Positions 6,632-63,809 of a stretch of DNA of 64,000 nt are shown piece after piece (position 1 is the first letter of the stretch; the number at the start of each line of letters is the position of its first letter). Location of the stretch: the NCBI RefSeq assembly GCF_002157895.1, contig NZ_CP021377.1, forward strand, positions 1,488,001 through 1,552,000. The letters are read 5' to 3'. A model generated the notes under the pieces. That model was not told where the DNA came from. It worked only from the letters and a program-made list of their open reading frames with translations, and made no database searches. The DNA comes from Oceanisphaera profunda. GTDB taxonomy: Bacteria; Pseudomonadota; Gammaproteobacteria; Enterobacterales; Aeromonadaceae. The position numbers and the translations under genes were made by a program.

Positions 6632-6774
6632 GGGGATAACCTCTGAATTTGTAGGCCGTGTCGCTATCTGATCCTATGCCAGACACCACACGTAACGATT
6701 CACGTTTTGTGAAGGGTGCGAATAATATAGTATCGCTTTTTTACAGGCAAGGATAACCGGAGGTTAATTCATCA

Positions 6775-58686: not shown

Positions 58687-60960
58687 TTATTCATCCTGAC
58701 TGAAAAGCGCATCAATAAATTCCCGGGCGACAAAGGGACGTAAGTCATCAATTTTCTCACCCACCCCAATATAGCGAATAGGAATGCCAAACTTGTCGGC
58801 CACCGCAAAAATAACCCCGCCTTTGGCGGTGCCATCCAGCTTACTTAACACAATACCGGTGATCGGCACCGCCTCATTAAAGACTTTTGCCTGACTAAGC
58901 GCATTTTGGCCGGTGCCCGCATCCAGCGTCAGCATGATTTCATGGGGAGCTGCGCCATCAATTTTTTGCATCACCCGCACCACTTTCTTCAGCTCGTCCA
59001 TCAAGTGCGCTTTATTCTGCAAACGACCGGCGGTGTCGACCAGTAACACATCGACTTTGCGCGCCTTGGCCGCTTCTACTGCATCATAGATAACAGAGGC
59101 CGCATCGGCACCGGTATGTTGGGCAATCACGGGGATCTTGTTACGCTCACCCCAGATTTGTAACTGCTCCACCGCCGCCGCGCGGAAGGTATCGCCCGCC
59201 GCCAGCATTACTGACTTACCTTCAGCCTGAAACTGGCGAGCCAGCTTGCCAATGGTGGTGGTTTTACCCACACCGTTGACGCCCACCATCAAAATCACAT
59301 AAGGCTTATGCTCGCTATCTATCACCAAGGGCTGCTCTACCTTGTGCAAGATGGTGGCCATTTCTTCTTTTAGTAGTTCATACAGAGCTTCACCGTCCTT
59401 CAACTGACGACGATTGGCTTGGCGCGTTAAATTATCAATAATCGAGAGCGTGGTTTCTACGCCCAAATCCGCCGTCAACAACTGAGTTTCTAGCTCTTCA
59501 AACAGCTCATCATCAATTTTTTTACCGCTGAATAGGCCAAAAAAGCCTGAGCCCAAATTTTGGCGAGTTTTCAGCAAACCACTCTTAAGGCGGGAGAAGA
59601 AACCTTGCTTTGGCGCTGCCGCAGCCAACGCTTGCGCTTCTGCTGCAAGACGCTCAGCTTCAGTTTCTTCCGCTAAACGTGCCTGCTCTGCCGCTTCAGC
59701 TTGTTCCGCTGCTTCGGCTTCTGCTGCTAAACGCGCCTGCTCTGCGGCCTCGGCTTCTGCCGCTAAACGAGCTTGTTCTGCCGCTTGTGCTTCTGCCGCT
59801 AAACGAGCTTGCTCTGCCGCTTCAGCTTCTGCCGCTAAACGCGCCTGCTCTGCCGCTTCGGCTTCTGCCACTAAACGCGCCTGTTCGGCCGCTTCGGCTG
59901 CTGCCGTCAAGCGCGCTTGTTCTGCGGCTTGTGCTGCTGCCAAGCGAGCCTGCTCTGCCGCTTCAGCTTCTGCCGCTAAACGCGCTTGTTCTGCTGCTTC
60001 GGCTTCTGCCGCCAAACGCGCCTGCTCTGCCGCCTCGGCCTCTGCTGCTAAACGCGCCTGCTCTGCCGCTTGTGCTTCTGCCGCCAAACGCGCTTGTTCT
60101 GCGGCTTGTGCTTCTTCCGCTAAACGAGCTTGCTCTGCCGCTTCAGCTTCTGCCGCTAAACGCGCCTGCTCTGCCGCTTCGGCTTCTGCCACTAAACGCG
60201 CCTGTTCGGCCGCTTCGGCTGCTGCCGTCAAGCGCGCTTGTTCTGCGGCTTGTGCTGCTGCCAAGCGAGCCTGTTCTGCCGCTTCGGCTTCTGCTGCTAA
60301 GCGAGCCTGCTCTGCCGCTTCAGCTTCTGCCGCTAAACGCGCTTGTTCTGCTGCTTCGGCTTCTGCCGCCAAACGCGCCTGCTCTGCCGCTTGTGCTTCT
60401 GCCGCCAAACGTGCTTGTGCTGCTGCCGCTAAACGCGCCTGTTCCGCCGCTTCAATTTCTGCTGCCAAACGAGCTTGTTCTGCGCCTTCGGCTGCTGTTG
60501 CTAAACGAGCTTGCTCTACCGCTGCAAATTCGTCTGCTAATCGCGCCTGTTCGGCGGCTTCTGCTTGAGCCTCTGCGGCCGCGGCCAGTGTTGCTTGCTC
60601 CGCGGCTTCGGCCTGAGCCGCTAGTCGTGCCTGCTCCGCTGCGTTAAATTCTGCAGCCAAGCGATCATGTTCAACCGCATCGGCAACTTCGGCCAACCTG
60701 GCTTGCTCTGCCGCTTCAGCTTCCAGCGCTAACCGTGCTTGCTCAGCGGCTTGTGCTAATCGAGCTTGTTCCGCTGCCTCGGCCTCTGCTGCCAAGCGAG
60801 CCTGTTCGGCGGCGTCAGCTTCTGCCTGTAGTCGTGCCTGCTCTGCGGCTTCGGCCTCGGCGGCTAAACGTGTTTGTTCTGCTGCCTGCTCTGGCGTGGG
60901 TGCTGGCTGTTCTTTATTTTTGCCAAAGCCAAACCAAGATAAAATACCTTTCTTTGCCAT
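58687..60960 (-). CDS. ftsY: Signal recognition particle receptor FtsY with greatly expanded repeat domain
   Basis: 757 residues, against 497 in E. coli. N-terminal MAKKGILSWFGFGKNK, then about 420 residues (28-448) of 12-residue repeats of the type EQARLAAEAEAA, then a normal NG GTPase domain (450-757): FFSRLKSGLLKTRQNLG membrane-binding helix, G1 GVNGVGKTTT (560-569), DTAGRL (642-647), SKLDGTAKGG (about 706-715). The ATG at 60960 is chosen over a GTG five codons earlier. The NG domain gives the essential function (docking SRP-ribosome complexes at the membrane). The repeats replace the usual acidic A domain and should form a long charged helix. Confidence 0.97.
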   Translation of the reverse strand: MAKKGILSWFGFGKNKEQPAPTPEQAAEQTRLAAEAEAAEQARLQAEADAAEQARLAAEAEAAEQARLAQAAEQARLALEAEAAEQARLAEVADAVEHDRLAAEFNAAEQARLAAQAEAAEQATLAAAAEAQAEAAEQARLADEFAAVEQARLATAAEGAEQARLAAEIEAAEQARLAAAAQARLAAEAQAAEQARLAAEAEAAEQARLAAEAEAAEQARLAAEAEAAEQARLAAAQAAEQARLTAAAEAAEQARLVAEAEAAEQARLAAEAEAAEQARLAEEAQAAEQARLAAEAQAAEQARLAAEAEAAEQARLAAEAEAAEQARLAAEAEAAEQARLAAAQAAEQARLTAAAEAAEQARLVAEAEAAEQARLAAEAEAAEQARLAAEAQAAEQARLAAEAEAAEQARLAAEAEAAEQAEAAEQARLAEETEAERLAAEAQALAAAAPKQGFFSRLKSGLLKTRQNLGSGFFGLFSGKKIDDELFEELETQLLTADLGVETTLSIIDNLTRQANRRQLKDGEALYELLKEEMATILHKVEQPLVIDSEHKPYVILMVGVNGVGKTTTIGKLARQFQAEGKSVMLAAGDTFRAAAVEQLQIWGERNKIPVIAQHTGADAASVIYDAVEAAKARKVDVLLVDTAGRLQNKAHLMDELKKVVRVMQKIDGAAPHEIMLTLDAGTGQNALSQAKVFNEAVPITGIVLSKLDGTAKGGVIFAVADKFGIPIRYIGVGEKIDDLRPFVAREFIDALFSQDE
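59614..60879 (-). repeat. Coding 36-bp tandem repeat array in ftsY (about 35 units)
   Basis: Units of 12 codons centred on E-Q-A-R-L-A. Some are shortened by one to six codons (EQARLAQAA, EQARLAAAQAA, EQAEAA), always in frame. A nested 321-bp duplication is visible: the block with VAEAEAA, TAAAEAA and AAAQAA units near 59860-59950 recurs almost exactly 321 bp further on (CTGTTCGGCC at 59881 and 60202). Confidence 0.95.
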
Positions 60961-61093
60961 TATGTTATTACTCACAAATGTCGGGGGGAGATTAGAGCTG
61001 GCCGTGGCTCTGTCCCTTCTTTAGAATACACAGCACCTTGAGGGTGCAAAACCGCCTTCATACTAGCACTTTATTGAAAGACGGCGAAACGAG

Positions 61094-61687: not shown

Positions 61688-62010
61688 ACATAATAAATCT
61701 GATGATGCGTTTGATTATGCTGCTGTTTTGGGCAGGCGTTATTTATGCCGTGGTAGGCCCAGACTTTCAGGAAGTCGGCACTATGCCCATGATTTTGGGT
61801 GTGGTGGTGCTGGTCATGCACCTCTTGCAAATGTTGATGCTAAAACAGGCATCTCAGTTTTTAGATCTGACTGCCAAAGACTATTTAGCGGTACTGGTAT
61901 TCGGCTCGTTTGCCATGAATCACCACCGCGCACGCTTAAAAGAAATTTCGGAAGAGAATAAGCAGAAAAACGCACAAAACAGACAGAAAAAACAACAGTC
62001 GAAAGATTAA
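61684..62010 (+). CDS. DUF1145 small membrane protein (YhhL-like)
   Basis: 108 residues with two or three predicted membrane helices (MRLIMLLFWAGVIYAVV, then MPMILGVVVLVMHLLQMLML) and a basic, Lys/Gln-rich C-terminal tail. In E. coli the DUF1145 gene yhhL follows rsmD in the same way. The frame extends 23 codons upstream into rsmD; the ATG at 61684 in the rsmD stop context is the start. Function unknown. Confidence 0.88.
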   Translation: MNIINLMMRLIMLLFWAGVIYAVVGPDFQEVGTMPMILGVVVLVMHLLQMLMLKQASQFLDLTAKDYLAVLVFGSFAMNHHRARLKEISEENKQKNAQNRQKKQQSKD

Positions 62011-62324
62011 TCGTTGGCTATGGCTTCTTGGCCACACTGCCAACAAAGCTCAAAACTGCCAGCATTGTGCTCTCCACATTGCTGGCAGTACCAAGCCGGT
62101 TTATTTTGTTGTTGGTAGTTGAGTAGAATCTGCTGAGCTTGAGCGAGGTGTGAGTGCTTAACCAATAGCGTCACTTCTATGGCATTAGCGGGTAATTCAC
62201 CTAAGGCACCGGCTAGTGCTTCCCCTTGCAGTTGCACCTCAATACCCGAGACTTCTAATGCGCCTTTTAACAGGTGCGCTTCTAGGCTGTTGCCCGCCCG
62301 ATAAATAGCATGCCACTGACTCAT
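62007..62324 (-). CDS. DUF2007 protein with C-terminal zinc ribbon
   Basis: 105 residues. The N-terminal DUF2007 domain (WHAIYRAGNSLEAHLLKGALEVSGI, ferredoxin-like fold) is followed by a four-Cys zinc ribbon (WYCQQCGEHNAG and ELCWQCGQEA). Domain members are called putative signal-transducing proteins without proven function. Its last four bases overlap the convergent DUF1145 gene. The CsrB-type RNA gene lies just upstream on the same strand. Confidence 0.85.
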   Translation of the reverse strand: MSQWHAIYRAGNSLEAHLLKGALEVSGIEVQLQGEALAGALGELPANAIEVTLLVKHSHLAQAQQILLNYQQQNKPAWYCQQCGEHNAGSFELCWQCGQEAIAND

Positions 62325-62397
62325 ACTTACTAAACCTTACGTTAGGGTTTATTGATGTTTCGTTCGTCACGCCGCTGAACAACGAATTTAAGGCATA

Positions 62398-62671
62398 GAA
62401 AAGGGGGATGACTATCGTCATCCCCCTTTGGGTTGTCGTATGGCTCAAATCCCTAAACCAATGTTGCTCCCTGCACTCCTTGACATAGTACCTTATCCTT
62501 AAGGCATTTCCTCATACCGATCCATCGGCGTGTCCTGTGTCATCCTGACTGCGACTCATCCTGATTCGCATCACTCTCCATCCTAGAGGTGTCCCTTGCC
62601 GCTTCCTGCGGAATTCCTTTCGCCTTACTTAGCAAGCCTGTCTTCCTGATGGGCTTCCCTTGCTCCCTGCT
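62398..62671 (-). ncRNA. csrB: CsrB/CsrC-family CsrA-sequestering small RNA
   Basis: On the minus strand an approximately 274-nt RNA starts about 7 nt after TATAGT and ends in a perfect terminator (GGGGGATGAC, loop, GTCATCCCCC, T run; 62399-62428). It has 17 GGA motifs outside the terminator, many as AGGA/AGGGA in predicted loops, for example CCGC-AGGA-AGCGG, the classic CsrA target form. The length falls between E. coli CsrC (about 245) and CsrB (about 369). It has no ORF. It should titrate the RNA-binding regulator CsrA, controlled by the BarA/UvrY two-component system. csrA is not in the window. Confidence 0.9.
62399..62428 (-). terminator. Terminator of the CsrB-type RNA
   Basis: AAGGGGGATGAC paired with GTCATCCCCCTT around a 4-nt loop, followed by U residues on the minus strand. 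Confidence 0.92.
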
Positions 62672-62677
62672 AAAGTA

Positions 62678-62705
62678 ACTATACAGTGTTTTTTACGCGT
62701 CTCAA
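62678..62705 (-). promoter_or_regulatory. Sigma-70 promoter of the CsrB-type RNA
   Basis: TTGAGA (62705-62700), 16-bp spacer, TATAGT (62683-62678) on the minus strand. Confidence 0.75.
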
Positions 62706-62850
62706 GTTAAGAATGCGTAGTGCATTTTGCGAATATGTCACTATTTATTTTTAAGTAGTTGTTTTAAATGTGATTAATTTAAAGAGTGAGCTAATACTAC
62801 TCACTAAAGCGTTATTGCACCCCGCATATTACGATATAGCGCACAGCAAG

Positions 62851-62868
62851 TCGGGCGGATCTCTTACA
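62851..62868 (-). promoter_or_regulatory. UvrY/GacA-like binding site upstream of the CsrB-type RNA
   Basis: TGTAAGAGATCCGCCCGA on the minus strand. The left half TGTAAGAGATC fits the TGTAAG..ATC..CTTACA-type operator, the right half does not. It is centred about 188 bp before the predicted start, close to the distal UvrY site position known for enteric csrB. Confidence 0.55.
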
Positions 62869-62948
62869 AGGATTCGCTTGATAAAAATATAGTTCCAACT
62901 GAGCGCGTCGCTTAGGATAGAGTTATCGCTTAAACAGGAGTAATTATC

Positions 62949-63809
62949 ATGACGGCTTCACCATTACCTTCCGCTTTAGTGGACGCGCACTGGCTAGCGG
63001 CACACTTACATGATCCAAATTTAGTGGTGCTGGACGCCAGCTGGCATATGCCCGCCGCCCAACGCTCTGGCGTAAGTGAATGGCGCCAGCAGCGTATTCC
63101 CGGCGCCCGTTTTTTTGATTTTGACCAAGAGATAGCTGATAACAGTAGCTCACTGCCGCACATGCTGCCGAGTGCTGAGCAGTTTTCGCGACAAGTGTCG
63201 GCGCTGGGCATTAGCAATCACCAGCAAATAGTTATCTATGACAGCAGTGGTATTTTTGCTGCCCCCCGAGCTTGGTGGATGTTTAAGGCCATGAGCCACT
63301 CCCAAGTGGCGGTACTGGATGGTGGCTTGCCGAATTGGCTGGCACTCGATTTGCCAGTAGATAACACACCGCCCACAGCAGTGGCTGCTGGTAAATTTGA
63401 AGCCCAGCTACAAGACCACTGGCTTGTTGACGCTAATCAAGTGCAAGCGGCGCTCACGCAACCCAACCAGCAAATTTTAGATGCGCGCAGCCGTGAGCGT
63501 TTTAGCGGCCAAGCGCCCGACCCGCGCCCTGGAGTACGAGCTGGCCATATGCCAGGTGCGGCTTGTTTACCGTTTAGCGAGCTGTTGCAGCAAGGGCAAT
63601 ATTTACCCAAAGACCAATTAGCAGAAAAACTCGCCCCGTTATTAAGCCCTGAGCAAACGCTAATTTGTAGCTGTGGCTCTGGTGTTACCGCCGCCATTAT
63701 TGCACTGGCAGCCTATCTCACCGGCCATCAAAAAATTGCGGTATACGATGGCTCTTGGACCGAATGGGGTGGCTCAGTGCAACTGCCGGTGATGACTGGC
63801 GAAGGGTGA
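62949..63809 (+). CDS. sseA: 3-mercaptopyruvate sulfurtransferase
   Basis: 286 residues with two rhodanese domains. The C-terminal catalytic loop is CSCGSGVTA; the CG[S/T]GVT form marks mercaptopyruvate rather than thiosulfate specificity. The N-terminal domain has VVLDASWHMP and the inactive first loop. It transfers sulfur from 3-mercaptopyruvate to thiols or cyanide. The ATG follows CAGGAG. The C-terminal codons run into a 7-bp repeat array. Confidence 0.95.
   Translation: MTASPLPSALVDAHWLAAHLHDPNLVVLDASWHMPAAQRSGVSEWRQQRIPGARFFDFDQEIADNSSSLPHMLPSAEQFSRQVSALGISNHQQIVIYDSSGIFAAPRAWWMFKAMSHSQVAVLDGGLPNWLALDLPVDNTPPTAVAAGKFEAQLQDHWLVDANQVQAALTQPNQQILDARSRERFSGQAPDPRPGVRAGHMPGAACLPFSELLQQGQYLPKDQLAEKLAPLLSPEQTLICSCGSGVTAAIIALAAYLTGHQKIAVYDGSWTEWGGSVQLPVMTGEG

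What the first reader, a model, noticed from the sequence alone, without database searches (positions are those of the whole stretch)
62398..62868. CsrB-type global regulatory RNA with its promoter and UvrY-like site
The 624-bp gap between a DUF2007 gene and sseA is not empty. Read on the minus strand it has TTGAGA-16-TATAGT, an approximately 274-nt transcript with 17 GGA motifs (many AGGA in hairpin loops), a perfect terminator, and TGTAAGAGATC about 188 bp upstream. This is the full architecture of a CsrA-sponge RNA gene. It would be missed by protein-based annotation and controls carbon storage, motility and biofilm in relatives.
Basis: partly seen in the sequence, partly recalled or inferred. 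Interest (0 to 1): 0.8.

Follow-up and report, generated by a model that had tools for sequence, protein, structure and literature searches.

The report
CsrB regulatory RNA gene, ordinary
The gap between two protein genes holds a gene for CsrB, a well-known small RNA that soaks up the global regulator CsrA; it is a real but ordinary member of a known RNA family, in a bacterium that carries the rest of the same control circuit.

Summary
The minus strand of the 624-bp gap between the DUF2007 gene and sseA matches Rfam CsrB (RF00018) with 89.4 bits, cut-off 71, E 1.7e-22. The predicted 274-nt transcript has 18 GGA (reader: 17); 0.1% of 5000 dinucleotide shuffles reach that, and the window's next-best stretches have 8. 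The gene sits between sseA and the DUF2007 gene in 22 of 23 genus genomes searched. There 15 of 18 GGA are kept in at least 20 of 22 copies, and 8 of 65 predicted pairs show double changes. The genome also encodes CsrA, UvrY beside uvrC, BarA and a CsrD relative, plus a second csrB copy below the cut-off. Correction: the UvrY-like site is only the left half of the 18-bp palindrome, with a second TGTNNG starting 23 bp on, the spacing reported for E. coli csrB (PMC4682653); 16 of 22 orthologs keep a nearly intact palindrome. A third csrB copy, seen in at least 15 of 23 genus genomes, was not found here. Expression was not measured. Ordinary; low interest.

The parts
62398..62671 (-). csrB RNA gene, predicted 274-nt transcript (start site predicted, not measured)
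   Evidence: RF00018 match 62392-62692 minus, 89.4 bits, E 1.7e-22; fold -87.8 kcal/mol, z -3.52; 18 GGA; 22 syntenic copies including this one; pairs kept with double changes
62678..62705 (-). sigma-70-type promoter TTGAGA-16-TATAGT
   Evidence: TTGA and TATA invariant in the conservation line over 22 copies; not above chance by the scan alone
62400..62429 (-). intrinsic terminator hairpin, 13-pair stem and 4-nt loop, short T tail
   Evidence: stem 100% paired with 3 doubly changed pairs in the orthologs; not listed by the simple scan
62851..62868 (-). UvrY-like site, first element: TGTAAGAGATCCGCCCGA (left half of the palindrome only)
   Evidence: 12 of 18 to TGTAAGAGATCTCTTACA; position -197 to -180; E. 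coli csrB palindrome is centred at -183/-182 (PMC4682653 section 25)
62828..62845 (-). UvrY-like site, second element: TGTGCG..., starts 23 bp after the first
   Evidence: TGTNNG-N17-TGTNNG in 14 of 22 copies, against 52 of 4400 mononucleotide shuffles; pattern chosen after seeing the alignment
62752..62764 (-). possible IHF site AAACAACTACTTA, one mismatch to WATCAANNNNTTR (consensus recalled)
   Evidence: 17 of 22 upstream regions hold a match with at most one mismatch on either strand; 354 of 1100 shuffles do; weak

Best explanation
A csrB gene. UvrY, phosphorylated by BarA, binds the two-element site about 157-197 bp upstream and activates the sigma-70 promoter. The RNA of about 274 nt, ended by its terminator, exposes some 15 conserved GGA motifs in hairpin loops and linkers and binds several CsrA dimers. 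This keeps CsrA away from its target mRNAs. A CsrD relative may speed the RNA's decay. Shown here by sequence: family membership, conserved motifs and structure, synteny, and presence of the partner genes. Inferred from E. coli and Vibrio: expression, CsrA binding, UvrY control, decay, phenotypes.
For: RF00018 over cut-off, full model length. GGA excess. 22 syntenic copies in 23 genus genomes searched. 15 of 18 GGA kept in at least 20 of 22 copies; GGA triplets are kept in 18.7 copies on average against 12.6 for the other triplets. 98.9% of cells paired; 8 of 65 pairs with a change on both sides against 2.5 in shuffles. CsrA 119.4 bits against a cut-off of 73, UvrY 415.2 against 280, BarA 906.7 against 890 on a fragment cut by the locus end. 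UvrY is followed by a UvrC-domain gene.
Against: No expression or binding data. 'Further pair types' did not exceed shuffles (225 of 500 reach it), many pairs never vary, and the structure was derived from the same alignment. The single-sequence fold differs in part from the Rfam structure. The promoter-like site is not above chance by the scan, and the terminator was not listed by it. The UvrY site is degenerate in its right half. The CsrD relative is below its family's curated cut-off (582.5 against 663).
Confidence: 0.97

Rival explanations
1. A decayed or silent csrB copy, with the second copy (G000:C1:2169959-2170244) doing the work.
For: The upstream palindrome is half lost, while the second copy has a more symmetric one, 13 of 18; several copies per genome are common in the genus.
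Against: The RNA, the promoter letters and the terminator stem are conserved, and this is the better-scoring copy (89.4 against 42.8 bits). Five other copies, G014 among them, keep a two-element site of the same spacing without the palindrome.
Confidence: 0.05
2. A chance GGA-rich, structured gap, or the untranslated part of a neighbouring mRNA.
For: It lies between two divergently read genes, and no transcript was seen.
Against: Covariance-model hit E 1.7e-22, syntenic copies with double changes, promoter-like and terminator-like sequences of its own; the next-best 274-nt stretches in the window have 8 GGA.
Confidence: 0.01

Closest known systems
CsrB/RsmB RNA family (Rfam RF00018), E. coli CsrB/CsrC
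   Same: Full-length model match, many GGA in loops, terminator, far-upstream UvrY-type site; 22 GGA in E. coli CsrB (PMC7652899, passages) against 18 here
   Different: 301 bases matched against a 356-position model; the upstream palindrome is half-lost
E. coli csrB/csrC UvrY sites (PMC4682653, passages and section 25)
   Same: 18-bp site near -183 followed 5 bp later by a TGT..G element at csrB; here the same 23-bp start-to-start spacing; E. coli csrC also has a weakly symmetric site
   Different: The right half of the first element does not match here
Vibrio csrB1-4 (PMC6262261, passages)
   Same: Several csrB copies per genome, in conserved synteny groups
   Different: Two copies found here; flanks are sseA/DUF2007 and methylguanine-DNA methyltransferase/D-Ala-D-Ala carboxypeptidase genes

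Membership tests
CsrB/RsmB (RF00018) | Covariance-model score over the gathering cut-off | tested here: met
   89.4 against 71 bits
CsrB/RsmB (RF00018) | Many GGA motifs, many of them in hairpin loops, conserved | tested here: met
CsrB/RsmB (RF00018) | Conserved stems shown by covariation | tested here: met
   8 of 65 pairs with double changes; modest, as many pairs never vary and one of five measures is not above shuffles
CsrB/RsmB (RF00018) | Own promoter and intrinsic terminator | tested here: met
   by sequence and conservation only; the consensus scan alone is not significant for either
CsrB/RsmB (RF00018) | UvrY/GacA palindrome upstream | tested here: inconclusive
   half palindrome plus second TGTNNG element
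CsrB/RsmB (RF00018) | CsrA and BarA-UvrY encoded in the genome | tested here: met
CsrB/RsmB (RF00018) | Expressed and binds CsrA | not testable with these tools
   no RNA or binding data

The most novel reading that the evidence does not exclude
In the window's lineage this csrB is driven by two tandem UvrY half-sites 23 bp apart instead of the palindrome that 16 of 22 orthologs keep, while the third csrB copy is missing. The lineage would then have rewired how strongly BarA-UvrY drives its CsrA sponge.
Probability: 0.3. Interest if true: 0.25.

Novelty: new member of a known kind. Interest (0 to 1): 0.12.

Why it matters
It places the RNA that, in relatives, governs carbon storage, motility and biofilm through CsrA, and gives its copy number and likely control site in this genome. 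It does not change what is known about the family. The comparison of upstream sites across 22 orthologous copies could help define what UvrY really needs.

Tried and rejected
Chance GGA richness: rejected by shuffles and by the slide over the whole window. The promoter scan alone: not significant. A third csrB copy at the threonine synthase locus of this genome: blastn of the 15 third copies gave nothing better than E 0.16 against L163, and RF00018 at E up to 1 gave only two matches in this genome. A 23-bit hit in G017 (L153, 6 GGA) was dropped before grouping the other 58 of 59 genus hits into 22 sseA-linked, 21 linked to the second flank and 15 others. Of those 15, I read the flanking genes of 5 (L124, L127, L133, L142, L161); the other 10 were grouped because they match neither of the two other flanks. 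All but one of the 59 hits (the second copy of this genome) come, whose stricter filters lose weak matches: one search showed further weak hits in G014 (41.2 bits), G001 (32.3 bits) and G005 (20.9 bits) that I did not place, so 21 and 15 are lower bounds. An IHF site was tried and is weak. The SseA search of genome contigs gave mostly distant relatives. Literature searches. For Oceanisphaera with CsrA or CsrB, any two of the three terms, the 8 papers listed of 429 had no occurrence of Oceanisphaera. That genus was my guess for the window's organism; no call named it. I make no claim about what is absent from print.

Full report
What is there. The 624-bp gap (62325-62948) lies between a DUF2007 gene (62007-62324 minus, PF09413, 52.5 bits) and a gene with two rhodanese-domain stretches, consistent with sseA (62949-63809 plus, PF00581, 101.9 bits). 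On the minus strand, Rfam RF00018 (CsrB) matches 62692-62392 with 89.4 bits, cut-off 71, E 1.7e-22, over the whole model. The predicted 274-nt transcript (62671-62398) has 18 GGA and 10 AGGA. Dinucleotide shuffles give 11.3 +/- 2.1 and 4.2 +/- 1.8; 0.1% of 5000 shuffles reach 18 GGA. In a slide over both strands of the window the next-best 274-nt stretches hold 8. The strand folds 3.5 standard deviations below shuffles.

Conservation. RF00018 at E up to 0.001 rings in 49 of 61 genomes searched, 41 of 61 over the cut-off (stricter filters). Of the 23 genus genomes among them (G000-G022), 22 have a copy flanked by both sseA and the DUF2007 gene; the one without, G008, is 84% complete. In the alignment of these 22 copies (A1), 15 of the 18 GGA are kept in at least 20 copies. 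Three are not: at 62658 (3 of 22), 62511 (6 of 22) and 62423 in the terminator stem (4 of 22). GGA triplets are kept in 18.7 copies on average, the other triplets in 12.6. Mean identity of the 21 other copies to the window copy is 0.81 for the RNA, 0.63 for the promoter stretch and 0.49 for a 180-bp upstream stretch.

Structure. RNAalifold gives 65 pairs. Over 21 distinct rows 98.9% of cells pair; 8 pairs have double changes (shuffles 2.5 +/- 0.9, 0 of 500 reach it), and sliding the partners drops pairing to 31-45%. Against this, the count of further pair types is not above shuffles (225 of 500 reach it) and many pairs never vary, so covariation is present but modest. The structure came from the same alignment, which favours it.

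Control region. TTGAGA-16-TATAGT is present, and TTGA and TATA are invariant in the conservation line over the 22 copies. The scan by itself expects 1.4 such sites by chance and did not list the terminator. A nearly intact palindrome (TGTNNGAGATCTCTN[A/C]) is present in 16 of 22 copies and absent in 6 of 22, the window among them. All 6, and 8 of the other 16, have TGTNNG-N17-TGTNNG, 14 of 22 in all, against 52 of 4400 mononucleotide-shuffled regions. That pattern was chosen after seeing the alignment, and the copies are related, so the contrast is not an independent test. E. coli csrB has its palindrome centred at -183/-182 and a partly conserved TGTAGGAGA 5 bp further on, which is the same 23-bp start-to-start spacing; E. 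coli csrC has a site of weaker symmetry (PMC4682653, section 25 read whole). I read the window's site as a degenerate relative of that layout that may still work. This is inference.

Circuit. The genome has one CsrA match (119.4 bits, cut-off 73). UvrY (415.2 bits, cut-off 280) is followed 6 bp on by a UvrC-domain gene. BarA scores 906.7 bits, cut-off 890, on a fragment cut by the locus end. There is a full-length relative of CsrD with GAPES4, GGDEF and EAL domains, below its curated cut-off (582.5 against 663). A review says that CsrD orthologs appear restricted to Enterobacteriaceae, Shewanellaceae and Vibrionaceae (PMC7652899, passages).

Copy number. RF00018 finds two copies in the genome: this one and one at G000:C1:2169959-2170244, 42.8 bits, below the gathering cut-off, with 16 GGA in its matched stretch and 165 of 284 aligned bases equal to this one. 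The second copy lies between methylguanine-DNA methyltransferase and D-Ala-D-Ala carboxypeptidase genes. By the flank search 20 other genus copies lie there too, 19 with both flanks found and one, on a short stretch, with one. A third group of 15 copies lies, where I read the flanks (5 of 15), beside a threonine synthase gene (the gene's family in this genome). At that gene the most GGA in any 274 nt, at steps of 5, is 7 in the window's genome, 9 in G014, 5 in G010 and 9 in G017, against 20 in G011, which has the third copy. G022 and G008 gave no match to the threonine synthase query. Several csrB copies per genome, with duplications and losses, are known in Vibrio (PMC6262261, passages).

Verdict. 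A genuine csrB gene, correctly read from raw sequence. It is a new member of a known family; nothing about it is surprising. Expression, CsrA binding and phenotypes are inferred, not shown.

Noticed in passing
window 6639-6692, minus: Rfam match to the gammaproteobacterial L31 ribosomal protein leader, 56.9 bits against 33.2.
   Followed up: no
window 58687-60975, minus: FtsY-like protein (SRP54 domains) with a long N-terminal repeat region: tandem array of 36-bp units, 19.6 copies at 59711-60411. Long antisense reading frames there look spurious.
   Followed up: partly
L163 (G000:C1, beside threonine synthase), 729-1483: Where relatives carry a third csrB copy, this genome has repeated elements: 5 copies of a 118-nt unit, 61-100% alike, with palindromic pieces.
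   Followed up: partly
L177:405-2399: Full-length CsrD relative (GAPES4, GGDEF, EAL) below the curated cut-off of the CsrD model. A review lists only three families with CsrD; whether this genome lies outside them was not established by name.
   Followed up: partly
L002: Second csrB copy of this genome with a more symmetric UvrY-like site upstream, TGTGCGAGATCTCGCAAA, 13 of 18 to the palindrome.
   Followed up: partly
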